Virus record (IMG/VR): IMGVR_UViG_3300034073_001700
Coordinates: 56,143-120,142 of that record
From: a virus
Length of the DNA stretch: 64,000 bases
Direction: 5' to 3' (one strand)
The notes below the pieces were generated by a model, which searched no databases, had not been told where the DNA came from, and was given only the letters and a program-made list of their open reading frames with translations. Positions 2,763 to 28,543 of this stretch are shown in pieces. Position 1 is the stretch's first letter, and every line of letters starts with the position of its first letter. The position numbers and the translations under genes are program-made.

Positions 2763-2834
2763 GGCACTATCGTCTATCGGCTAGGACATCGCCCTTTCAC
2801 GGCGGAAAGACGGGTTCGATTCCCGTTAGTGCTA
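2763..2834 (+). tRNA. tRNA-Glu (TTC)
   Basis: Acceptor GGCACTA/TAGTGCT (G-U at pair 1), anticodon stem TCGCC/GGCGG with loop CTTTCAC (anticodon TTC), T arm ACGGG/CCCGT with TTCGATT, discriminator A. Last tRNA of the first cluster. Confidence 0.92.
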
Positions 2835-2847
2835 CACTTTAAAGTTA

Positions 2848-2862: not shown

Positions 2863-3546
2863 ATGGAAAAAATATATTTAGATGAAGACAAAAAGGTTTG
2901 GATTATTGAAAACTTCCTTACCGAAGAAGAACTAAAATGGTTTAAAGAGCAAACCGACGATGAAAATGGGTGGTACCCAACAATGAGGTCTCCATATAGA
3001 AATATATTAAATAAATTTTTAAATATCGTTCCAAGATATGACGACACTGGTAACATTATATTCCCAGATGAAAACTCTCAAGTATTACAACTAGAAATTT
3101 TTACTAAACCTGGCGGAATTTGGGATAGACTTGAATCTGTATTGCCACCAGTATATGGAAGACATGCTACATTACAATCTTTTAAGTATATGACAGATGA
3201 AGAAATAAAGGAAGCAGTAAACGATACATTATTAAGAGAATATAAGATTAAAGTTGAAGATATAGACTTTGCTATGTACTGGCATCAAGATCCAGATGAA
3301 GAGCAGAACATAATTTGTTCTTTTAGTCTTTACCTAAACGACGACTTTGAAGGTGGAGAATTGGAATTTGCAGAAGTTCCAATCAAACTAAAGCCAAAGG
3401 CTGGGACCTTGGCCGTAATACCTGGCGGACATAAGTATCGACATAGGGTAAATAAGGTGTTAGGCCCTAATTCACGTCATACCCTATATGGAAACTCTTT
3501 TATAGATGCTTCTAAGATACCTCAAAGCACAAAAGATGACTGCTAA
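2863..3546 (+). CDS. 2OG-Fe(II) oxygenase (prolyl-4-hydroxylase type)
   Basis: A 227-aa protein with a complete Fe/2OG site: H141-Q-D143, distal H194 in the YRHRV segment and R205 in SRHTLYG, together with the typical strand FEGGELEF between them. The family hydroxylates proline or other residues of peptides, or free substrates. Its start has no ribosome binding site and lies 6 nt after a -10 element, suggesting leaderless translation. It directly precedes the peroxide cassette. The substrate is unknown. Confidence 0.82.
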   Translation: MEKIYLDEDKKVWIIENFLTEEELKWFKEQTDDENGWYPTMRSPYRNILNKFLNIVPRYDDTGNIIFPDENSQVLQLEIFTKPGGIWDRLESVLPPVYGRHATLQSFKYMTDEEIKEAVNDTLLREYKIKVEDIDFAMYWHQDPDEEQNIICSFSLYLNDDFEGGELEFAEVPIKLKPKAGTLAVIPGGHKYRHRVNKVLGPNSRHTLYGNSFIDASKIPQSTKDDC

Positions 3547-3551
3547 AAGAG

Positions 3552-3560
3552 TGTTATAAT
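3552..3560 (+). promoter_or_regulatory. Extended -10 promoter of the Gpx-like gene
   Basis: TGT-TATAAT at 3552-3560, no recognisable -35. Unlike the leaderless genes it is followed by a leader with AGGAGG (3577-3582), 6 nt before ATG 3589. Confidence 0.65.
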
Positions 3561-3588
3561 AATCCCATAACCCCACAGGAGGTAATTG

Positions 3589-4404
3589 ATGAAATCAATT
3601 TACGATATCGAATTGGAATCAGCCGAAGGCGTTCCACACTTTATGCAACAGTTTAAGGGCAAAGCGATCATGCTTATCAACACAACAGTTGGTTGTGGAA
3701 ATGCTGGTCAAATGCAACCCATTCAATGGATACAGGAAGACCTTGCGGGAGAAGATTTCTCCGTTGTTGCAATCCCAACAAATGATTTCTGTGGCCCAAG
3801 CATTACAAAAGGCAAGTGGTCTAAAGGAATTGAAAAAGGTTTAGACTCAAAGAACTACGGAGAAGATGTATACGGAGTTACATTCCCATTCTCACAAATG
3901 ATTACATCTAATCCAGCAGAGATTCCATTAGAGGCTCCATGGCTTGGAAAAGGCCCAGGACTTAACGGAAATGGAGAGCCTTTTGGAGAAAGACACGAAC
4001 TTTATTTAGAAGTTTCAGAACAAATTAAAGCAATACAGTTAAAGAAAATAGAACTTGGTATTGTAGAAAGGACAGATTACGAATCACGTTATTTAAATGA
4101 ACACAACGGTGGCTTGTATATGAACTGTAACTTTGAAAAATATTTAATTGATAAGGACGGATATGTTGTTAAGCACTATCCTTGCACAACATTAAATTAT
4201 GATGTTGAAAAGACACTCAAAGAAGACCTTTTAGAAAAGGGAATTTTTGCAAAAATGGGTCCAGATAGATCCCCTTCTATTTTTGACGAAGAAAACAGAG
4301 TTATCCGTGACCACATTCAGCGTCTTATGAATGGAGAAAAATCAATTATTAATCCTAGTAATACGCTAACAGAAAAGTCTAAAGAACCACTGACAATCTC
4401 ATAA
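3589..4404 (+). CDS. Divergent glutathione-peroxidase-like thiol peroxidase
   Basis: A 271-aa protein in the thioredoxin-fold Gpx family. The peroxidatic Cys motif is NTTVGCGNAG (C36), and the second and fourth family motifs are recognisable as IPTNDFC (64-68 region) and NCNFEKYLID. Compared with the usual Cys-Gln-Trp-Asn tetrad, Gln is Asp and Trp is Cys here; Cys and Asn remain. About 100 extra residues are inserted relative to a 160-aa Gpx. AGGAGG is spaced 6 nt from ATG 3589; a TTG at 3586 is too close. Likely reduces peroxides with a thioredoxin-type donor, or has a changed substrate. Confidence 0.7.
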   Translation: MKSIYDIELESAEGVPHFMQQFKGKAIMLINTTVGCGNAGQMQPIQWIQEDLAGEDFSVVAIPTNDFCGPSITKGKWSKGIEKGLDSKNYGEDVYGVTFPFSQMITSNPAEIPLEAPWLGKGPGLNGNGEPFGERHELYLEVSEQIKAIQLKKIELGIVERTDYESRYLNEHNGGLYMNCNFEKYLIDKDGYVVKHYPCTTLNYDVEKTLKEDLLEKGIFAKMGPDRSPSIFDEENRVIRDHIQRLMNGEKSIINPSNTLTEKSKEPLTIS

Positions 4405-4416
4405 AAATATAAACTA

Positions 4417-4462
4417 TTTTCTCCTATGGTATACTTAATATATAGCATAGGAGAAAATTTTT
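4417..4462 (+). promoter_or_regulatory. RBS-sequestering hairpin with a -10 element in the loop
   Basis: A perfect 12-bp stem, TTTTCTCCTATG (4417-4428) with CATAGGAGAAAA (4446-4457), 17-nt loop. The right arm contains the AGGAG site of the gpx start at 4463. TGG-TATACT at 4427-4435 would start RNA near 4442, after the left arm, leaving the site free. Read-through RNA from upstream would fold and hide it. The run of five T after the stem means it could also act as an intrinsic terminator of the upstream gene. Confidence 0.7.
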
Positions 4463-4894
4463 ATGAGCATATATGATTTATCATTTACTGATAACAATAA
4501 AAATGTTATACAGTTAAAGAATTTTGAAGGAAAAAATATATTAATAGTCAACACTGCAAGTCATTGTGGAAATACCCCACAGTATGCAGATTTACAAAAA
4601 ATACAAAGTGATTCGTTGGTTGTTATTGGCTTTCCTTGCAACCAGTTTGGTAATCAGGAGCCAGGAACCAATGATGAAATTAAGGCTTTTTGTACAACTA
4701 ATTACGGTGTAACCTTCCCAGTGTCTGAAAAGGTAGAGGTTAATGGTCCTAACGCTCACCCTATATATAAGTACTGCAAAGAGGCTACTGGAGTAAGTAA
4801 TATTGGATGGAACTTTGAGAAGTTTTTAATATCTGCTGATGGGTCCATCTCTCATTATCCTACATCTTGCCCAGTATCTGATATAATAAAATAA
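4463..4894 (+). CDS. gpx: Glutathione peroxidase family protein (Cys type)
   Basis: A 143-aa single-domain Gpx. Motifs in order: NTASHCGNTPQY with peroxidatic C35 in the Sec position, FPCNQFG with Gln61, and GWNFEKFLI with Trp and Asn, giving the complete tetrad. C78 in AFCTTNYG is a good candidate resolving Cys, which points to thioredoxin rather than glutathione as reductant; Actinobacteria generally lack glutathione. Reduces H2O2 and lipid peroxides in the cytoplasm. It sits between a divergent Gpx-like gene and katG, and a hairpin covers its ribosome binding site. Confidence 0.9.
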   Translation: MSIYDLSFTDNNKNVIQLKNFEGKNILIVNTASHCGNTPQYADLQKIQSDSLVVIGFPCNQFGNQEPGTNDEIKAFCTTNYGVTFPVSEKVEVNGPNAHPIYKYCKEATGVSNIGWNFEKFLISADGSISHYPTSCPVSDIIK

Positions 4895-4904
4895 CTACTA
4901 GTAG
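4879..4904 (+). promoter_or_regulatory. katG promoter with palindrome at the start point
   Basis: TGA-TATAAT at 4879-4887, inside the last codons of gpx. The predicted start point (about 4894) coincides with a perfect 10-bp palindrome CTACTAGTAG at 4895-4904, placed where a repressor would block initiation. The ribosome site GAAAGAAG follows. Confidence 0.5.
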
Positions 4905-4915
4905 AAAGAAGCATA

Positions 4916-7000
4916 ATGTCAGAAGCAAAATGCCCATTCACAGGCAATAGCCTAACAAACGAAGGAACATATAATAAGGATTGGTGGCCAAACCAGTTAG
5001 ATTTGTCTCCTTTAAGAAAAAATTCAGAAAAATCTGATCCTATGGGAGAAGACTTTGACTACGCTAAAGAGTTTAATAGTTTAGATCTTGATACTCTTAA
5101 GGCTGATATTGAGGAAGTTATGACTACCTCGCAAGATTGGTGGCCTGCCGATTACGGTAACTACGGCCCACTATTCATTCGTATGGCATGGCACTCTGCA
5201 GGTACATACAGAACAACTGATGGTCGTGGTGGCGCAGGAGAAGGCCTACATAGATTTGCTCCACAAAATTCATGGCCAGATAATGGTAATTTAGATAAGG
5301 CTCGAAGACTTCTTTGGCCTATTAAGAAGAAGTATGGAAAGAAGATTTCATGGGCAGACCTCATGATTCTTGCTGGTAACGTTGCTTTAGAAAACATGGG
5401 CTTTAAGACTTTCGGTTTTGGTGGAGGTCGTGAAGATGTTTGGGAAGCAGATGATACTTACTGGGGTAGTGAAAAGGAATGGCTTGCAGACAATCGCTAT
5501 AGCGGAGATCGTGAGTTAGAGAATCCTCTTGCTGCAGTTCAGATGGGTTTGATTTATGTAAACCCTGAGGGTCCAAATGGTAATCCAGATCCACTTCTAT
5601 CTGCTCGTGATATTCGTGAGACATTTGCTCGTATGGCAATGAACGATGAAGAGACTGTAGCACTTATTGCTGGAGGACATGCATTTGGTAAAGCACATGG
5701 TGCTGGAGATCCTAAGCATGTTGGTCCAGAACCAGAAGGTGCACCAATTGAAGAACAAGGTCTTGGATGGAAAAATTCATTTGGAAAGGGTAATGCAGAA
5801 GATACTATTACAAGTGGTATCGAAGGTGCATGGACTCCAACTCCAACAAAGTGGGATAACACCTACCTTAAACTATTATTTAAGTATGACTGGAAGCAGG
5901 TAAAGAGTCCTGCTGGTGCTACACAATGGATTCCCACAGATGAGTCTGCTGCTAATTTAGTTCCAGACGCACACGTTGAGGGTAAATTCCATGCTCCAGT
6001 TATGACAACTGCAGACTTAGCACTTAAGTTTGATCCAGAATATGAAAAGATTTCAAGACGATTCCTTGAAGACTTTGACTATTTCTCTGATCAATTTGCT
6101 CGTGCCTGGTTTAAGTTGACGCATAGAGATATGGGTCCAATTGCAAGGTATCTTGGTAAAGAGGTTCCTGTAGAAGAACTAATTTGGCAGGACCCAGTTC
6201 CTGTATCAATTACAAAGGATATTGATGTAGAGAGTATTAAGAATAGAATTAAATCTTCTGATATTCCTATGTATCATTTTGTCTATACGGCATGGGCTTC
6301 TGCGTCTACCTTCCGCAAAACAGATAAGCGTGGTGGTGCAAATGGCGCTCGTATACTACTTGAGCCACAGCGTAGTTGGGAAGTAAATGATAACTCAATA
6401 ATTTCTAGCGCTGTTGATTTCCTTAGCACGGTTCAAAAAGAACATATGATTTCTATGGCAGATTTAATTGTTCTTGCTGGATGTGCAGCAATCGAAAAGG
6501 CTTCTGGAGAAAGAGTTAAGGTTCCATTTACTCCTGGTCGTGGAGATGCAACTCAAGAGCAGACCGATGTTGAGTCTTTCAAAGTTCTTGAACCTATCGC
6601 AGATGGCTTTAGAAATTATTTAGGAAAAGGCACTACAGTTCCTTCAGAAATTTTGTTGGTAGAGAAGGCTAATATGCTAAATCTAACCCCAGTAGAGATG
6701 GTTGTTCTTCTTGCTGGAATGAGAACATTAGTGATTGATACACTAAATAATGGCTATCTGATTAGTCTTTTGTCTGGACAAATTTCTTGGAAGCAAACAT
6801 CTATTGATAATTTCCAAGGATATGTCAACGGAGAACTAGTTGGTAATGCAACTCGTGTTGATCTGATTACTGGATCAAACTCAGAACTCCGTGCTATTGC
6901 AGAGGTATATGCTTCTGACGATGCAAATGATAAGTTTGTGTCTGACTTTGCTAAAGCATGGAATAAGGTAATGATGCTTGATAGGTTTGATGTCAAGTAA
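4916..7000 (+). CDS. katG: Catalase-peroxidase KatG
   Basis: A 694-aa bifunctional haem enzyme that dismutates H2O2 and has peroxidase activity. The N-terminal active domain is complete: distal R89, W92, H93 (RMAWHSAG), Y214 and M240, which together with W92 would form the Met-Tyr-Trp adduct needed for catalase activity, and proximal H255 ([11 protein letters not shown]). The C-terminal non-haem domain is also full length, so the gene is intact and slightly shorter than the common 720-750 aa. It has its own extended -10 and follows two Gpx-type genes. An intact katG is not a standard phage gene and implies host origin. Confidence 0.97.
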
Positions 7001-7012
7001 TAAGTAGGGGTT

Positions 7013-7084
7013 GCCTCCTTAACTCAGGGGTAGAGTACCCGCCTTGTAAGCGGGTTGTCGTAGGTTCAAATCCTACAGGAGGCT
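7013..7084 (+). tRNA. tRNA-Thr (TGT)
   Basis: Perfect 7-bp acceptor stem GCCTCCT/AGGAGGC, D arm ACTC/GAGT, anticodon stem CCCGC/GCGGG with loop CTTGTAA, T arm GTAGG/CCTAC, discriminator T. It lies 12 nt after katG, outside the first tRNA cluster, so tRNA genes flank the peroxide cassette on both sides. Confidence 0.94.
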
Positions 7085-7085
7085 C

Positions 7086-7100: not shown

Positions 7101-7283
7101 ATGGATTTAGAAAAAGAAATTAAAAATATATTATTTAATATAGGAAAAGATATACAGATCCATAAACTTATTGATGGCAACATGATTATTGAAATAGATT
7201 ATGACAAATACGTATCTGAAATTAAAAATCTAATAGATAATTATTTACTGGAAGATGGATTCCAGAATAAAGAATCATTGTAA
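7101..7283 (+). CDS. Small hypothetical protein (60 aa)
   Basis: A 60-aa acidic, mostly helical protein beginning MDLEKEIKNILFNIG. The start is set by a -10 element 6 nt upstream. Its last 43 nt overlap the 3' end of the convergent sulfotransferase gene, marking the main strand switch of the window. No family recognised. Confidence 0.6.
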   Translation: MDLEKEIKNILFNIGKDIQIHKLIDGNMIIEIDYDKYVSEIKNLIDNYLLEDGFQNKESL

Positions 7284-7987
7284 TATATTTCTTTATCAAA
7301 CATAAAATGATTATAAATATAATCTTTTTCCTCTTGACTTAGTTTATTAAATAAAGATTCGGAGGCATAGTTTTTAAATGTTAGACTATCTGTTTCTCCT
7401 AAATTTATCTTTATATCTACGCCTAAGTCTGAAGATATTTTGTTGACTAGATCATAATAGTTCATATTTTTTAAATCTTTGTGCCTAAGCATCAAGTTAG
7501 TTCTTTTAATTCTTTTATATACTAATTCTTTATTTATTATAAAGTTATCTTTATGCTTCACCCTTGACTCATATATAGTATTGCCTATGCTTGGCTCTAA
7601 AATAAAGTTTTGTGATTGAAAATCTTTTAAGTAAGTAAACTCAGACAAAGCCTTATATATTTGATATTTCTCTATTTCTAGACTAGCGCCATTATGTTTT
7701 AGTATAAAGTTATTATTTTTATCTATTAGCCCAACTTCATCTGAAATCATATGTGCGAGGGCACTTATAAAAAATTCTACTGGATCTCTAAATATTGTAA
7801 TAACATATGTTTCATCATCTATATCTTTATACCAGCCACCATGCTTATGAATATTAGAAGGTAAACTAATAGTCTTAATATTGTTTTGTTCTAGTGTATT
7901 TTGTATTGGTTCTAGAATATATTTTGATAAGAACCTTCCGCCTGTTTTAGGTATGTGTAAAAAATATATCTTATTATACTTTTTCAC
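7241..7987 (-). CDS. Sulfotransferase-family protein
   Basis: A 248-aa protein with the 5'-phosphosulfate loop HIPKTGGRFL at residues 11-20, as in sulfotransferases that use PAPS. A second conserved element (TIFRDPVEFFISAL) matches the 3'-phosphate-binding Arg region that follows in this fold. It would transfer sulfate to a glycan or small molecule. Start is GTG (7985-7987), overlapping the stop of the 46-aa gene by 1 nt, so it is translationally coupled. A second such gene lies at 16.2-16.8 kb. The acceptor is unknown. Confidence 0.7.
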   Translation of the reverse strand: MKKYNKIYFLHIPKTGGRFLSKYILEPIQNTLEQNNIKTISLPSNIHKHGGWYKDIDDETYVITIFRDPVEFFISALAHMISDEVGLIDKNNNFILKHNGASLEIEKYQIYKALSEFTYLKDFQSQNFILEPSIGNTIYESRVKHKDNFIINKELVYKRIKRTNLMLRHKDLKNMNYYDLVNKISSDLGVDIKINLGETDSLTFKNYASESLFNKLSQEEKDYIYNHFMFDKEIYYNDSLFWNPSSSK

Positions 7988-10496: not shown

Positions 10497-11918
10497 CTAT
10501 TTTATCACTTTAGTATTATAGGTTTCTTGCCATTTTAATATATCATTTTCATCATTTAACAACGGCTGTCCTTTAATATTTAAACTAGTATTTAGCAATA
10601 TTGGCACCCCTGTCATTGCATACCAATTAGAAAGAACATCATATAGCCCAGGGTGTTGATCTTTATTTACTGTCTGTACCCTTGAAGTACCGTCTTGATG
10701 AACAACAGATGGAATTAGTTCTGGCTTTAAACATTTTGGAGTATATTGCATATATGGGGAGGCATAGTTCATATCAAACCATTTGCCTGCATGCTCTTCC
10801 ATAATAACTGGAGCAAAAGGTCTAAACAATTCTCTTTTTTTAATTAAATTAACTTTATCCTTAATATTTGGATCTCTTGGATCTGCAAGAATAGATCTAT
10901 TTCCAAGCGCTCTTGGGCCATACTCTGCTCTTCCTGTTGCGACTGCAACAATTTTATCTCTAATTAAGCCAGTGATAATTTCTTTTACTGGATATTCCCC
11001 GCCCAAATCATATCCTAAGTATGGATGTTGCCAATTAACATGCTTGCCATATGCTGCTGTTGCTGCACCCAAAGATGAACCAGCGTCACCAGGATTAGGC
11101 ATAATCCAAACATCATCAAACATTCTCCAAAGCATTGTGTTGGCTGCACAGTTAAGGGCACAACCACCCATAAAAACAAGGTTGCGTTTACCTGTAAGTT
11201 TCTGCGCCATGGCCATAAAATTAACTAATCTTTCTTCGTATACCCTTTGAACAGCAGCAGCAATATCAAACTGTTCTCTATGCCCTATATGTTCATTCCA
11301 GTCTATGATTCCTTTATGAAAATTATATTTTTGTGTATTTATATCTGGAAAATATTCTTTTACTTTAAGATAATATCTTGTCCAATCTCCATAGGCTGCC
11401 ATCCCCATCATAATATATTCTTCTTGATTTGGCATAAGTCCTACCAACTGAGTGAAAGCAGAATAAAATAAGCCGAAACTAAATGGGTAATTCTTTTTGT
11501 ATACTTGCTTTATTGAAGAGCCCTCTCCAACCCAAATAGTAGAAGTATTGTATTCTCCAATAGCATCGAGAACCACTATAACAGCATCATTAAATTTACT
11601 TGTATAGTAGCCAGCACAAGCGTGAGAATAGTGGTGGCTAAAGTATTTTACTGGTAAGTCCATAGGAATATTTGGTTTCCAATCTGCCGCTCCACCTCTT
11701 AACATTATTCTAGATCTTTTAAGCCAAGGCTTTTCATAATATGCTATGACATTAGGTGTCCCATAGTTTAATGCATCTAGTATAATTTCTTTATTATTGT
11801 ACCAATCATTTTTTTCCTTACTATATCTTTCTGCATGACCAGCAAAAAGTATTTCTCCATCTTTAATTAAAGATACAGATGCGTCGTGCGAAGTTTCATT
11901 TATTCCAAGAATTATCAT
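10497..11918 (-). CDS. NodU/CmcH-type carbamoyltransferase
   Basis: A 473-aa protein, N-terminal ASKHA-fold domain starting MIILGINETSHDASVSLI, metal-site motif HHYSHA (H95, H96, H99), and the C-terminal carbamoyltransferase domain with FMGGCALNCAAN and RAEYGPRALGNRSILADPRD. It transfers carbamoyl from carbamoyl phosphate, via carbamoyl-AMP, to a hydroxyl of a sugar, antibiotic or nucleobase. It is shorter than typical members (550-600 aa). Phage homologues have been linked to carbamoylation of hydroxymethyl-pyrimidines in DNA, from memory. A weak ribosome site is present; a 28-aa reading frame ends 12 nt before it. Confidence 0.88.
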   Translation of the reverse strand: MIILGINETSHDASVSLIKDGEILFAGHAERYSKEKNDWYNNKEIILDALNYGTPNVIAYYEKPWLKRSRIMLRGGAADWKPNIPMDLPVKYFSHHYSHACAGYYTSKFNDAVIVVLDAIGEYNTSTIWVGEGSSIKQVYKKNYPFSFGLFYSAFTQLVGLMPNQEEYIMMGMAAYGDWTRYYLKVKEYFPDINTQKYNFHKGIIDWNEHIGHREQFDIAAAVQRVYEERLVNFMAMAQKLTGKRNLVFMGGCALNCAANTMLWRMFDDVWIMPNPGDAGSSLGAATAAYGKHVNWQHPYLGYDLGGEYPVKEIITGLIRDKIVAVATGRAEYGPRALGNRSILADPRDPNIKDKVNLIKKRELFRPFAPVIMEEHAGKWFDMNYASPYMQYTPKCLKPELIPSVVHQDGTSRVQTVNKDQHPGLYDVLSNWYAMTGVPILLNTSLNIKGQPLLNDENDILKWQETYNTKVIK

Positions 11919-13610: not shown

Positions 13611-13895
13611 CTATATCCAGTACTTAAGTATAGCAGTTATGGCTAAAATTGTCCAGAGTATATTAAACCAAATTAGTGTGGGTATTGTTTTTACAGTAGA
13701 AGACCATATTAGCATTAGGCTTGAAGCGAGGGCAAAAATATAAAGCCACCACCATTGCTTATTAAATAATAGTCCTGGGATAATTATTACTGCCTTGGTC
13801 ACAAAAGCAAAAAATTCAACAATATTAGGTTTATTCCAGTAGGATTTATTGCCCATGGTTTTTAATGCATAAAGCCAATCTAATTTAAAATTCAT
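13611..13895 (-). CDS. Multi-pass small membrane protein
   Basis: A 94-aa Trp-rich protein with about three hydrophobic helices (residues 27-45, 46-62, 70-90). Its start overlaps the 3' end of the halogenase gene by 11 nt, so it is translated from the same message. It could anchor or transport the halogenated product, but nothing in it identifies a family. Confidence 0.65.
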   Translation of the reverse strand: MNFKLDWLYALKTMGNKSYWNKPNIVEFFAFVTKAVIIIPGLLFNKQWWWLYIFALASSLMLIWSSTVKTIPTLIWFNILWTILAITAILKYWI

Positions 13896-15435
13896 TTAAT
13901 TGCTCCAAAAATTTTCTATGCCCAATACATTCAAATTTTTTATAGTCTTGAACACTTGTAAAATAATCATAGTTATCACAAGCATCTTTATATTTTTGAG
14001 AATAGTTTATATATTTTTCAGCAAGACTCTTATTTATTTTATTAATTCCTAAACCAACAACGAGCCAACTATCAAATGACCAATATGTTCCACTATCATG
14101 TTTGTTTGGAAATCTCTCCTGCCACAAATCTATCTTATTTTTTAAACTGTCTGGCGCATTGTTATAAGAAAATTTTGACCAAAACTCTGTATCTTTTCTG
14201 TCTCCCATATAATGAAAATAAACAAACTCTGCTATATCATTATTCATTTTGACTACATCTTTATTAAATTCTTTTCTTAAATTATCTGTGTTGCCAAACA
14301 ACCACTCTGGATTAGAGAATAATCTTTTTAACATATTTATGCTCGCCCAAATAGAAGTAGCCTCTAATGGCTCTATAAAGTTTGATGCAAGACCTATTGC
14401 AACACAGTTATTAACCCAAGGAGTCTCATAACATCCAGCACTAAATTTAAATCCACCCTTATCTTTACGTGGATATGATGGCTCATACCCTAAATATTCT
14501 TCTATCTCTTGTACTGCTTCAGACTCTGATATCATAGATGAATCATATACATACCCGCATCCAAATCTAGACTGTAAAGGAATCTTCCACATCCAGCCAT
14601 ACTTCATTGCTATTGCCTCAGTATATGGGGGAATTTCTTCTGTCATCTCAATAAAAAATGGTAGTGCTGAATCTACTGGAAGGAAATCACTATAACTCTT
14701 CCACTCTGATTTAAATAGTTTGCCTATGATTAACCTATGAAATCCACTGCAATCAAATACAAAATCACATGGCTCCATACTTCCATCTTCAAATGAAACA
14801 CTTTGTATATTATCATTGTAGTCTAGTGATATATTATTAATTGTTTTTTCAATTATCTTTATACCACGATCTATACCTATTGACTTTAGCCTATCGGCAA
14901 ATTTAGAGGCGTTAAAATGTATGGAGTGGGACGCTAAATTATCATAATCTGAATTTAAATTTTTAGTATAGGAATTTTTATCAACGAAAGGAACCTTGTT
15001 ATCTTCTGAAATTTTTTCTATAAAGTCAACTGGTCCAAACTTATTGTTTTTTATAATGCTAGAAATTATAAGAGGATGGGTTAAAAGTCCAGCAGACCCC
15101 GCATCGAATCCTGCTGATGTAGATTGCTTTACCGAAAAGGCATGATAATAAAAATCACCATCGTTGTTCCAGTTAGTAAACTTAATTCCATTTTTAATAG
15201 TGGTATCACAGTGCTGTACTAGATCATGCAATGGTATATCTAAACTATTAAGAAAGTCTACTATTTGTGGGGTAGATCCTTCTCCTGCACCTAAAATGCC
15301 AATATCCTTAGACTCAACCAATGTAACATTAAGATCTGGATATATCTTGTTTATATATAGTGCGGTCAACCAACCAGCGCTACCGCCTCCAACTACCAAA
15401 ATATTTTTGATGCTAATCTTCTTTACCACCCTCAC
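13885..15435 (-). CDS. Flavin-dependent tryptophan-halogenase-family protein
   Basis: A 516-aa enzyme. The FAD-binding VVGGGSAGW (14-22), the GEGSTP element (51-56), a Lys in the halogenase position (K81, in TTIKNGIKFTNW) and the diagnostic WMWKIP (281-286, WxWxIP) are all present. With FADH2, O2 and a halide such enzymes make hypohalous acid, which Lys passes to an aromatic substrate. They need a flavin reductase, normally the host's. A cyanophage relative (VirX1) is a proven iodinase with broad substrates, from memory. Start is GTG at 15433-15435, inside the upstream gene; nearby alternative starts exist. Confidence 0.9.
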   Translation of the reverse strand: MRVVKKISIKNILVVGGGSAGWLTALYINKIYPDLNVTLVESKDIGILGAGEGSTPQIVDFLNSLDIPLHDLVQHCDTTIKNGIKFTNWNNDGDFYYHAFSVKQSTSAGFDAGSAGLLTHPLIISSIIKNNKFGPVDFIEKISEDNKVPFVDKNSYTKNLNSDYDNLASHSIHFNASKFADRLKSIGIDRGIKIIEKTINNISLDYNDNIQSVSFEDGSMEPCDFVFDCSGFHRLIIGKLFKSEWKSYSDFLPVDSALPFFIEMTEEIPPYTEAIAMKYGWMWKIPLQSRFGCGYVYDSSMISESEAVQEIEEYLGYEPSYPRKDKGGFKFSAGCYETPWVNNCVAIGLASNFIEPLEATSIWASINMLKRLFSNPEWLFGNTDNLRKEFNKDVVKMNNDIAEFVYFHYMGDRKDTEFWSKFSYNNAPDSLKNKIDLWQERFPNKHDSGTYWSFDSWLVVGLGINKINKSLAEKYINYSQKYKDACDNYDYFTSVQDYKKFECIGHRKFLEQLNEF

Positions 15436-16811: not shown

Positions 16812-17093
16812 TTAGTCTAATGTTAAATTTTGCCAAGCATTTGCCCAGTCCTGTGCAGTTTTGTGGTCGTTAAATTCTTTAGAAATAGAACCAGCATCCA
16901 AATAAATACCGCCCCACACTCCATATTCTTTGCTTGATACACCAACAGCAAAACATGTTTTTGCTACTGGACAATTTAAACAAAGTAGATCTATTGCTGG
17001 CCTAAGAGCAGACTCTTCTTCGTACTTATCAAAAAATAAATTAGTATCATAATCTAAACAAGATGCCTGATCTTTCCATTTAAGTTTGTGCAT
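16812..17093 (-). CDS. whiB: WhiB-family Fe-S transcription regulator
   Basis: A 93-aa protein with the four Fe-S ligands C12, C38, C41 and C47 (LCLNCPVAKTC) and the GVWGG turn at 58-62. WhiB proteins exist only in Actinobacteria and their phages; they bind the primary sigma factor region 4 and can redirect transcription, sensing O2 or NO through the cluster. The basic C-terminal tail typical of DNA-binding members is missing, so it may work mainly through sigma. A mycobacteriophage WhiB blocks host WhiB2, from memory. Confidence 0.92.
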   Translation of the reverse strand: MHKLKWKDQASCLDYDTNLFFDKYEEESALRPAIDLLCLNCPVAKTCFAVGVSSKEYGVWGGIYLDAGSISKEFNDHKTAQDWANAWQNLTLD

Positions 17094-17304
17094 GTCCTAT
17101 TACAAACCTTTCTGGAATATCCCAGCCATTTCTATTGGGGACAAATCGTCTCGACATATACCAATTATTTTTAAAATATACGCCATACTTAGAAGTTTTT
17201 GCTTTATCAGATCTGTATCGATTTACTACAGACCATCCATCCCAATACAAATCTTTATTATTGGAAACAATAGACTCCATTTGTTCTAAATTATCTATAA
17301 TCAT
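17080..17304 (-). CDS. Hypothetical protein (74 aa)
   Basis: ATG 17302-17304 has AGGAG 5 nt upstream and is preferred over a start 36 nt earlier. A Tyr/Trp-rich basic protein (NRYRSDKAKTSKYGVYF, NNWYMSRRFV) that overlaps whiB by 14 nt. A small DNA- or RNA-associated protein is plausible; no family recognised. Confidence 0.55.
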   Translation of the reverse strand: MIIDNLEQMESIVSNNKDLYWDGWSVVNRYRSDKAKTSKYGVYFKNNWYMSRRFVPNRNGWDIPERFVIGHAQT

Positions 17305-26758: not shown

Positions 26759-28543
26759 TTATATTGTTTTAAGTCTATCCAAATAGTCTTTTATATCTTC
26801 TATTTGACTAGGTTTATATTGTATCACGTTCTCAGGGAGCGTGTCAACTCTGCGGGGCTGGCCACGAAAAGTATGAACTTCTACTTCAAGGTTTTGATCT
26901 CTGGGTGTATAAGAAATGGCACCAAAAATAGAACCACAAACAGCATCAGCCAAGTCCTTAGATTTTTTACGGGGGTGGTCAACCTTATCATTTTTCATAA
27001 TCTTAAGTTCAGTTAACTCTTCAAACAAAAGTTCTATAGCAGGCATAGCAAGTCGTTCTTCATACACAAGCATGGCCATATCTTCATAATGCTTCTTTGC
27101 TACTGAGACTGTCTCTGTTCTCATTCCTACTGCCTGTAATTCATTTTGAATATCAAATGATTGCCAACGGTCAAATGTAACTAATCCTATATTAAACCCA
27201 AGCCTTCTTAGATTTTGTATCCACTGTTTTACTTCAGATAGATTAACTGGCCCCTCTACCTTTGGCTCCCACCAAGCAACAGCATCTACAACAACAATTG
27301 GGGATATTTGTTCATAGTCTTTAATTACTTGAACATTAACCCATTTCTCAACATGGGCGATTGCGACAGCACACTTGTCATGCTTTTGTGCAAGGTCAGC
27401 ATGAACATAATAAATTTTTTCTGGGTCTGGCTTAAAGTTTTCCTCAAACCTTCTAAAGGCATCAAGAGGATTTCTAATAGTCATACATGCCCTTACTTTA
27501 TTAGCCTGCTTAAAAAATGCATCAGAAGCATAAGTAGGAACACAGGCAAAACGCATCATTGCATCTCCAAGGTCAGTCATAAAAGCAATTTTAAAATCAT
27601 CTATTTGACGAGTAGGATTTACTTCCCATGTTGGGCGCTTAAGTGCAAACACTCCAGGGTATTTATATGATTTTATGTGATCTTCATCCCAAGCAATCTC
27701 AAACCAGTTATCCTTATCATCTTCTGGTAATAATGGATTAATAATAAATCTATGTGTTTTACCTATAACTTCCTTATCTGCAATTACTGATTCATACCGC
27801 TCAGAAATAAAGTCTCCGTTATATCTTGGGAACGAAAGAAGAACTACCTTGCCAAGATCAGGAAAGCGGGAGTCAACTGACCCACGGAATGCTTTATAGA
27901 TATTGTCAGCAGTCTTTCCTTGTTCATTGCCTGTTGCTACCTCTGATGCAAAACCAGAAATCTCGTCAAGAACTGCTAGTAAAAGATTAAGACCCTCATG
28001 AGATTCTCTTTCTGAGTGTCCAGAATAAACTGTAATTGATTTGTCAAAACTAATAGAGTCTACCTTTGCTTCATACTTGCCAGCAAACCAAGGTGATCTT
28101 TCTATCTTTGATTTAAAGCCTTTAAAGAAAACATTCTTAGCCTGCTGTGCGTTAATAGCAACATTAATAAGATCTATTGCATCTCCACTTGGTTTTCCGA
28201 AATATCTTGCAGGGTCTTTAAGACATAATAACTTATAGACAATATAAGAACAGGCAACAGTAGAAGTAAAGTCCTTCCCACTGCCCTTCCCAAGTTGAAG
28301 AATAATTTCGTTCTTTGTGTATTTTTCATAATATCTTGCTCCTTCCTCTTCTCCCATAATAGACTGAAGATCTTCTTTACGATATATCTGACTCATCGCT
28401 TCAACAATGTCATATTGAATATCAGATAGTGATGGCTGCCCCAAATAATCTGGAGATTCGACAAATGTTTTAGCGTCTACTGGGGTTTCTTCAAAATTAT
28501 TATCGGCAAGCGCTTCAAGAAAATCATCAAACATCATGGACAA
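26759..28543 (-). CDS. terL: Terminase large subunit
   Basis: A 594-aa packaging motor. Walker A LGKGSGKD at residues 84-91, Walker B LLAVLDE near 190, and the coupling motif LLSFPRYNGDF. The nuclease domain begins with YYVHADLAQKHDKCAV (first Asp) and ends with KDLADAVCG (last Asp), the RNase H-like sites. It drives DNA into proheads with the portal. It overlaps the small-subunit candidate by 17 nt. It sits more than 30 kb from the capsid genes, an unusual spread. Confidence 0.93.
   Translation of the reverse strand: MSMMFDDFLEALADNNFEETPVDAKTFVESPDYLGQPSLSDIQYDIVEAMSQIYRKEDLQSIMGEEEGARYYEKYTKNEIILQLGKGSGKDFTSTVACSYIVYKLLCLKDPARYFGKPSGDAIDLINVAINAQQAKNVFFKGFKSKIERSPWFAGKYEAKVDSISFDKSITVYSGHSERESHEGLNLLLAVLDEISGFASEVATGNEQGKTADNIYKAFRGSVDSRFPDLGKVVLLSFPRYNGDFISERYESVIADKEVIGKTHRFIINPLLPEDDKDNWFEIAWDEDHIKSYKYPGVFALKRPTWEVNPTRQIDDFKIAFMTDLGDAMMRFACVPTYASDAFFKQANKVRACMTIRNPLDAFRRFEENFKPDPEKIYYVHADLAQKHDKCAVAIAHVEKWVNVQVIKDYEQISPIVVVDAVAWWEPKVEGPVNLSEVKQWIQNLRRLGFNIGLVTFDRWQSFDIQNELQAVGMRTETVSVAKKHYEDMAMLVYEERLAMPAIELLFEELTELKIMKNDKVDHPRKKSKDLADAVCGSIFGAISYTPRDQNLEVEVHTFRGQPRRVDTLPENVIQYKPSQIEDIKDYLDRLKTI

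What the first reader, a model, noticed from the sequence alone, without database searches (positions are those of the whole stretch)
3552..7000. Phage-borne peroxide-detoxification cassette: Gpx-like, Gpx and intact KatG
Seen: three consecutive plus-strand genes coding two thioredoxin-fold peroxidases and a full-length catalase-peroxidase with all catalytic and adduct residues (W92, H93, Y214, M240, H255). They sit in a genome with terminase, capsid and tape measure genes, so this is a phage cassette and not flanking host DNA. Known: KatG removes H2O2, and Gpx-type enzymes remove lipid and low-level peroxides. From memory, cultured freshwater acI actinobacteria are limited by peroxide and grow when catalase is supplied. 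Inference: the phage keeps its host alive under light-driven peroxide stress during infection, or protects it from a peroxide burst caused by infection.
Basis: partly seen in the sequence, partly recalled or inferred. Interest (0 to 1): 0.88.

Follow-up and report, generated by a model that had tools for sequence, protein, structure and literature searches.

The report
Phage-borne peroxide-removal genes between tRNAs
A virus of actinobacteria carries an intact-looking hydrogen-peroxide-removing enzyme (KatG) related to that of the abundant lake bacteria called acI, next to two thiol-peroxidase-type genes; comparison with other phages shows these are two separate gene modules that share one slot between tRNA genes, so the idea of phages protecting their host from peroxide holds up but the 'three-gene cassette' does not.

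Summary
In detail: 3589-4404 (Gpx-like), 4463-4894 (Gpx) and 4916-7000 (KatG) are intact plus-strand genes in a 120-kb actinophage record. KatG passes both NCBIfam KatG cut-offs and keeps all 12 active-site residues checked. The phage assignment is right: close katG relatives lie in at least 147 viral contigs, and 25 of 47 records tested also carry this phage's terminase (55-95% identity). Phage KatGs form one clade (SH-aLRT 99) beside Nanopelagicaceae (acI) KatGs, under strong purifying selection. The cassette is mis-drawn. The conserved unit is 2OG-oxygenase/gpxL/gpx; katG is a separate module found on only two of 48 close gpxL contigs. Related phages fill the same tRNA-Glu/tRNA-Thr slot with katG alone or with oxygenase/gpxL/gpx alone; this phage has both. 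Each gene has its own extended -10 promoter. gpx also has a covarying hairpin that hides its ribosome site and carries its promoter. The Gpx-like protein lacks the Gln and Trp of the Gpx tetrad, so its peroxidase activity is doubtful. No Gpx was found in 296 Nanopelagicaceae genomes. Phage katG and phage peroxide defence are already published; the modularity, single origin, GpxL and hairpin look new. Function in infection is untested.

The parts
2763..2835 (+). tRNA-Glu(ttc): left edge of the cargo slot (preceded by tRNA-Met 2435-2509, tRNA-Asn 2529-2602, tRNA-Asp 2606-2680)
   Evidence: ARAGORN, Rfam; same left edge in L006-L010, L218, L221, L222
2848..2856 (+). extended -10 promoter-like element TGGTATTAT, 15 nt before the oxygenase gene
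   Evidence: pattern scan; the stricter TGNTATAMT form lies 10-70 nt upstream of 26/129 genes in sense and 2/129 in antisense
2863..3546 (+). 2OG-Fe(II) oxygenase (OX2OG), first gene of the conserved OX2OG-gpxL-gpx unit
   Evidence: Pfam 2OG-FeII_Oxy_3 1.9e-8; a 2OG oxygenase lies directly upstream of gpxL in 48/48 close loci
3552..3560 (+). extended -10 element TGTTATAAT, 37 nt before gpxL
3589..4404 (+). gpxL: Gpx-fold protein with a long insertion; Cys36, Cys68 and Asn181 invariant, Gln replaced by Asp66, Trp lost
   Evidence: Pfam GSHPx 9e-9; 33-sequence alignment; predicted fold matches Gpx structures
4416..4458 (+). inverted repeat/hairpin: 3' arm holds the gpx Shine-Dalgarno (AGGAG 4449-4453); extended -10 TGGTATACT (4427-4435) lies across the end of the 5' arm and the loop
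   Evidence: dG -21.8 kcal/mol, z -5.1; 4 of 12 pairs with compensatory change, 98.6% of cells paired against 46-62% when slid
4463..4894 (+). gpx: small Cys-type glutathione/thioredoxin peroxidase with complete Cys/Gln/Trp/Asn tetrad and a resolving-type Cys
   Evidence: Pfam GSHPx 4.7e-38; aligned to yeast Hyr1
4879..4887 (+). extended -10 element TGATATAAT of katG, lying inside the last codons of gpx; module junction
   Evidence: the same leader TGATATAATxGAATAACTACTAGTAGAA occurs in katG-only phages
4916..7000 (+). katG, bifunctional catalase-peroxidase
   Evidence: NCBIfam PRK15061 1113.5 bits, TIGR00198 997 bits; catalytic residues; tree; dN/dS
7013..7085 (+). tRNA-Thr(tgt): right edge of the cargo slot
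16815..17096 (-). WhiB-like regulator, marker of actinobacterial phages
   Evidence: Pfam Whib 8e-12
26759..28543 (-). terminase large subunit
   Evidence: PHROG; about 55% identity to 130-kb Streptomyces phages; present in 25/47 katG records

Best explanation
Two independently moving antioxidant modules have come together in one inter-tRNA slot of an actinophage whose host is probably an acI-like (Nanopelagicaceae) bacterium. Module 1 is katG with its own promoter and leader. It encodes a bifunctional catalase-peroxidase that disproportionates H2O2 in the infected cell (activity inferred from sequence), and phages acquired it once from a Nanopelagicaceae-type bacterium (shown by the tree). 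Module 2 is 2OG-oxygenase/gpxL/gpx. Gpx reduces peroxides through a Cys thiol, probably with thioredoxin, and needs no haem (inferred). GpxL is a degenerate Gpx-fold protein, more likely a redox partner of the oxygenase than a peroxidase (inferred). The genes look like self-contained units, each with its own extended -10 promoter (shown as sequence). gpx has in addition a hairpin that should silence it on read-through mRNA but free it on transcripts starting inside the hairpin, as in T4 gene e (inferred). The expected result is lower peroxide in the infected cell until lysis (inferred, untested).
For: KatG: family cut-offs; 12/12 active-site residues in 40/40 phage KatGs; dN/dS 0.03-0.10 in the haem domain and 0.13-0.28 in the C-terminal domain; at least 147 viral contigs; one clade beside Nanopelagicaceae group A, whose sister L176 lies on a contig with ordinary bacterial genes. 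Slot and modules. tRNA adjacency: 64/81 katG genes, 35/40 dereplicated, against 6.8% of other genes. Promoters. Hairpin. No Gpx in 296/296 host-family genomes and no katG match in 158/296. Actinophage. Gpx tetrad. GpxL linked to the oxygenase.
Against: No activity, expression or infection data. The host is inferred, not shown. The nearest assayed relative, the KatG of acI strain IMCC25003, was reported as not a functional catalase (PMC7527133, citing Kim et al.). Ferrochelatase exceeds the cut-off in only 10 of 296 Nanopelagicaceae genomes, so the protein may lack haem. The C-terminal domain is shortened and fast-evolving in phages. The inverted repeat could equally be a DNA operator or a terminator.
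Confidence: 0.62

Rival explanations
1. The peroxidases defend mainly against an oxidative burst rather than ambient light-made peroxide: either of a grazing protist that swallows the infected cell, or of the host's own response to infection.
For: Kavagutti et al. 2019 (PMC6802176) propose phage-mediated ROS defence in protist phagolysosomes and list glutathione peroxidases, superoxide dismutases and ferritin among genes carried by more than 10% of their freshwater phages.
Against: Nothing in the sequence tells the peroxide source. It is not exclusive of the main explanation, since the enzyme chemistry is the same.
Confidence: 0.2
2. KatG is retained but does little as a catalase: it is haem-starved or of low activity like its acI relative, and is kept for another peroxidase reaction or as cargo moved with tRNA genes.
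For: IMCC25003 KatG reported not functional as a catalase (PMC7527133); ferrochelatase rare in the host family; eroded C-terminal domain.
Against: All active-site residues kept in 40/40; dN/dS far below 1 in both domains; own promoter.
Confidence: 0.15
3. The genes support oxidative biosynthesis or modification rather than defence: the record has nine 2OG-oxygenase-like genes (OX2OG included), a tryptophan halogenase and a TauD-type oxygenase, and Gpx/GpxL/KatG manage peroxide from uncoupled oxygenases.
For: Nine OX2OG-type genes in the record, halogenase, TauD; gpxL lies beside 2OG-oxygenase genes in both gpxL groups.
Against: katG does not share this link: it sits directly beside tRNAs without the gpx unit in most phages.
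Confidence: 0.12
4. Mis-assembly, or host DNA joined to phage DNA.
For: None found.
Against: Other viral records, from many different IMG metagenome numbers, hold katG with the same tRNA edges and phage genes; phage KatGs are one clade separate from cellular ones.
Confidence: 0.01

Closest known systems
Virus-encoded katG auxiliary metabolic gene of lake viruses (Zhou et al. 2025, cited in PMC12713726; also estuary viruses, PMC13390420)
   Same: katG on viral contigs, read as H2O2 decomposition; estuary viral katG is more abundant at low salinity
   Different: The passages read do not describe gene neighbourhoods, the single acI-related clade, the tRNA slot or the gpx unit; the Zhou paper itself was not held, so this is not a full comparison
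Phage-mediated ROS defence (Kavagutti et al. 2019, PMC6802176)
   Same: Freshwater phages with glutathione peroxidases and other ROS genes
   Different: katG and catalase do not occur in its main text; the oxygenase/gpxL/gpx unit is not described in the passages read
KatG of Nanopelagicaceae group A (e.g. acI strain IMCC25003)
   Same: Nearest cellular relatives, about 65-70% identity over full length; same active site
   Different: Phage forms are a separate clade; C-terminal domain about 36 aa shorter at the median and divergence much more skewed to that domain
Cys-type Gpx / thioredoxin peroxidases (yeast Hyr1, poplar Gpx5)
   Same: Gpx keeps the tetrad and a resolving-type Cys
   Different: GpxL lacks Gln and Trp of the tetrad and has a long insertion
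T4 gene e / soc / I-TevI hairpin that hides the ribosome site, with an internal promoter (PMC3014915, PMC2988022)
   Same: Hairpin hides the ribosome site; a promoter inside it would give transcripts that lack the 5' arm
   Different: Here the promoter-like element is an extended -10, upstream of a peroxidase gene, in an actinophage; not tested

Membership tests
KatG (catalase-peroxidase HPI) | curated equivalog/subfamily score | tested here: met
   TIGR00198 997 > 770; PRK15061 1113 > 981
KatG (catalase-peroxidase HPI) | distal Arg/Trp/His, proximal His/Trp/Asp, Met-Tyr-Trp adduct residues, mobile Arg | tested here: met
   R89 W92 H93 Y214 M240 H255 W306 D367 R404
KatG (catalase-peroxidase HPI) | two-domain architecture with C-terminal domain | tested here: met
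   full-length match to 5l05, query 2-693; C-terminal domain shorter
KatG (catalase-peroxidase HPI) | haem binding and catalase activity | not testable with these tools
   needs purified protein
Glutathione peroxidase family, gpx (4463-4894) | Pfam GSHPx score and Cys/Gln/Trp/Asn tetrad | tested here: met
   129.5 bits, cut-off 27; tetrad aligned
Gpx7 / BtuE-type equivalogs, gpx (4463-4894) | NCBIfam equivalog cut-offs | tested here: not met
   108.7 < 207 and 137 < 270
Glutathione peroxidase family, gpxL (3589-4404) | Gpx fold / Pfam score | tested here: met
   35.3 bits > 27; best PDB matches are Gpx
Glutathione peroxidase family, gpxL (3589-4404) | complete catalytic tetrad | tested here: not met
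   Gln to Asp66 and no Trp in 33/33 sequences
Phage auxiliary metabolic gene | lies in a bona fide phage genome, recurrent in relatives | tested here: met
Phage auxiliary metabolic gene | changes host metabolism during infection | not testable with these tools
   needs infection experiment
T4-type ribosome-site-hiding hairpin switch | conserved hairpin hiding the Shine-Dalgarno | tested here: met
   absent in many relatives
T4-type ribosome-site-hiding hairpin switch | transcript start inside the hairpin that frees the site | not testable with these tools
   promoter-like element only

The most novel reading that the evidence does not exclude
GpxL is a phage-specific Gpx-fold family (invariant Cys36/Cys68, no Gln/Trp) that serves 2OG-Fe(II) oxygenases rather than removing peroxide, while katG and gpx are swappable antioxidant units in a tRNA-bounded cargo slot. 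gpx timing would be set by a hairpin with an embedded promoter, and the phage would supply acI cells with a haem-free peroxidase class that the host family lacks.
Probability: 0.3. Interest if true: 0.68.

Novelty: new variant of a known kind. Interest (0 to 1): 0.5.

Why it matters
acI actinobacteria are among the commonest lake bacteria; axenic culture succeeded when catalase was added, and their katG is patchy and, in one assayed strain, reported not functional as a catalase (PMC7527133). A phage lineage that has kept a KatG of acI-related origin under strong purifying selection makes a direct test possible: does infection supply the missing catalase, and is the enzyme better than the host's? 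The slot comparison also shows how phages swap such genes: small self-promoted units between tRNA genes, apparently joined at short shared sequence.

Tried and rejected
(1) katG remnants downstream of gpx in katG-less relatives: the hits were ORFs reading through tRNA genes that single-linkage clustering had merged with KatG; rejected. (2) KatG in the annotated phage collection: the 7 hits (<60% identity) look like bacterial genes in short unannotated, large or mislabelled records; not used. (3) AlphaFold of KatG on 14 similar sequences: mean pLDDT 56, uninformative; not used. (4) PHROG 'ferrochelatase' label on 427-984: partial match (E 1.3e-6) without Pfam support; not taken as haem synthesis. 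(5) Sigma-70 -35/-10 scan: fewer sites than in shuffles; the extended -10 motif found by upstream enrichment replaced it. (6) Two papers (Zhou 2025; a DOI tried from memory for the acI catalase paper) are not held. (7) Paper search on tRNA arrays as cargo hotspots gave nothing. (9) Rfam: only the tRNAs, so the hairpin is no known RNA family.
Full report
WHAT IS THERE. The window is bases 56143-120142 of a 120142-bp virus record. KatG passes both NCBIfam KatG models and matches solved KatG structures over its whole length. The record has terminase, major head protein, tape measure, minor tail protein, DNA polymerase and helicase, primase, and portal and a B12-dependent ribonucleotide reductase. 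It also carries WhiB (window 16815-17096), taken in the literature as an actinophage marker (PMC9878933). Its terminase is nearest, at about 55%, to 130-kb Streptomyces phages. So it is an actinophage.

NOT AN ASSEMBLY ACCIDENT. A scan of viral contigs with KatG found 147 stretches encoding close relatives (80 kept, 73-89% identity). Of 47 of these records, 25 also carry this phage's terminase at 55-95% identity, and many of the rest are fragments. In the closest ones katG sits between the same two tRNA genes.

ORIGIN AND SELECTION. In a tree of 109 KatGs the 40 dereplicated phage sequences form one clade (SH-aLRT 99); the phage sequences and 30 Nanopelagicaceae 'group A' sequences lie together (93, below the starred level). 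The sister of the phage clade, L176, is on a contig with ordinary bacterial genes. The tree is a quick one without bootstraps, so the exact attachment is provisional; a single phage clade is the firm part. Branch lengths show long evolution inside phages, not recent capture. All 12 active-site positions are invariant in 40/40 phage, 41/41 Nanopelagicaceae and 28/28 other sequences. dN/dS of the window gene against 17 phage relatives is 0.03-0.10 in the haem domain and 0.13-0.28 in the C-terminal domain. The phage C-terminal domain is about 36 residues shorter at the median than in group A, and its divergence relative to the haem domain is 3.3-fold, against 1.2-1.7-fold in cellular KatGs. The enzyme core is held tightly while the supporting domain erodes.

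THE CASSETTE IS TWO MODULES. A scan with gpxL found 149 phage stretches (80 kept). In the 48 close ones (L218-L265, 78-88% identity) a 2OG-Fe(II) oxygenase gene lies directly upstream in all 48, and gpx directly downstream in 47, the other contig (L244) ending there. katG is on only two of these contigs: L246 (= L040), directly after gpx, and L231 (= L038), about 2 kb further on. None of 33 other gpxL records, up to 118 kb, has katG; that search had no positive control of its own, but the same query found katG in other genomes. Conversely 9 of 22 large katG records have any Gpx-family gene. The slot between tRNA-Glu(ttc) and tRNA-Thr(tgt) shows it plainly: katG without the gpx unit in L006-L010 and L053; oxygenase/gpxL/gpx without katG in L218, L221 and L222; both in the window. 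Overall, katG lies within 200 bp of a tRNA gene in 64 of 81 loci (35 of 40 dereplicated), against 77 of 1125 other genes in the same loci.

THE JUNCTION. The katG leader of katG-only phages, TGATATAATxGAATAACTACTAGTAGAA, is present in the window, but there its promoter-like part is also the last codons and stop of gpx (TCT GAT ATA ATA AAA TAA). In L218, without katG, gpx ends TCT GAT ATT GTA AAG TAA. A crossover at this short shared sequence would join the modules; that step is inferred.

EXPRESSION SIGNALS. TGNTATAMT lies 10-70 nt upstream of 26 of 129 genes in sense and 2 in antisense, so it is a real promoter signature of this phage. In a slightly relaxed form the motif occurs five times on the plus strand between 2300 and 7200, each 15-37 nt before a gene: oxygenase, gpxL, gpx, katG and the small ORF at 7101. 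The genes look like separate transcription units. Between gpxL and gpx a hairpin (dG -21.8 kcal/mol, z -5.1) hides the gpx ribosome site and carries the gpx promoter. Four of 12 stem pairs show compensatory changes over six distinct sequences, and 98.6% of cells pair, against 46-62% when slid. Many relatives lack it and have short plain spacers. T4 genes e and I-TevI use such a hairpin so that only transcripts starting inside it are well translated (PMC3014915, PMC2988022). By analogy gpx would be silent on read-through mRNA. A DNA operator or a terminator would also fit, since the repeat is palindromic and followed by T5.

THE GPX PAIR. Gpx keeps Cys, Gln, Trp and Asn of the Gpx tetrad and a Cys where thioredoxin-type Gpx have their resolving one (the mechanistic reading is from general knowledge of the family). 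GpxL has invariant Cys36, Cys68 and Asn181, but Asp66 in place of Gln and no Trp in any of 33 sequences, plus a long insertion. Its predicted fold (pLDDT 82.5) matches Gpx structures. No full-length cellular homologue appeared in 397 Actinomycetota genomes, only partial matches of the kind ordinary Gpx would give, so it may be a phage family. Its constant neighbour is a 2OG oxygenase, and in the more distant gpxL group (52-56%) most members also lie beside 2OG-oxygenase genes.

HOST AND FUNCTION. In 296 Nanopelagicaceae genomes a katG match is found in 138, Gpx in none, and ferrochelatase over the cut-off in 10; some of these genomes may be incomplete. PMC7527133 reports that the KatG of acI strain IMCC25003 was assayed by Kim et al. 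and was not a functional catalase, that no haem synthesis pathway is recorded for the group, and that axenic acI cultures were maintained by adding catalase. If the host is of this family, Gpx brings a haem-free peroxidase the host lacks, and KatG may replace a poor or missing enzyme but must obtain haem. The host family is inferred from KatG, WhiB and terminase only.

AGAINST WHAT IS KNOWN. Viral katG as an auxiliary gene is published (Zhou et al. 2025, through PMC12713726; PMC13390420), and so is phage-mediated ROS defence with Gpx in freshwater phages (PMC6802176). New here, as far as the held papers show: the single acI-related clade, the two-module slot between tRNAs, GpxL, the absence of Gpx in the likely host family, and the hairpin. 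The finding is a well-supported variant of a known kind; the function in infection remains untested.

Noticed in passing
window 4416-4458: Covarying hairpin that hides the gpx Shine-Dalgarno and carries an extended -10 promoter; variants in L218, L219, L234, L236, L251.
   Followed up: yes
window 1-64000 and the rest of record G000: Phage promoter signature TGNTATAMT 10-70 nt upstream of about a fifth of the genes (26/129 sense, 2/129 antisense).
   Followed up: partly
record G000, e.g. window 2863-3546 and L003:9285-15446: Nine 2OG-oxygenase-like genes in one phage by homology to OX2OG, plus a TauD-type oxygenase (L005:11149-11973).
   Followed up: no
window 13885-15435 (-): Tryptophan halogenase family gene (PHROG and Pfam) in the phage; substrate unknown.
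   Followed up: no
window 10497-11918 (-): Nol-like carbamoyltransferase near a sulfotransferase-like ORF (7241-7987), suggesting glycan modification.
   Followed up: no
L003:7161-9191 (-): B12-dependent (class II) ribonucleotide reductase in the phage.
   Followed up: no
Nanopelagicaceae genomes: Several host katG matches carry an in-frame stop within the matched stretch, and two divergent katG groups exist; the position of the stops was not checked.
   Followed up: no
L267-L297: A second gpxL group (52-56% identity) in phages mostly without this terminase, next to 2OG oxygenases but without the adjacent gpx.
   Followed up: partly
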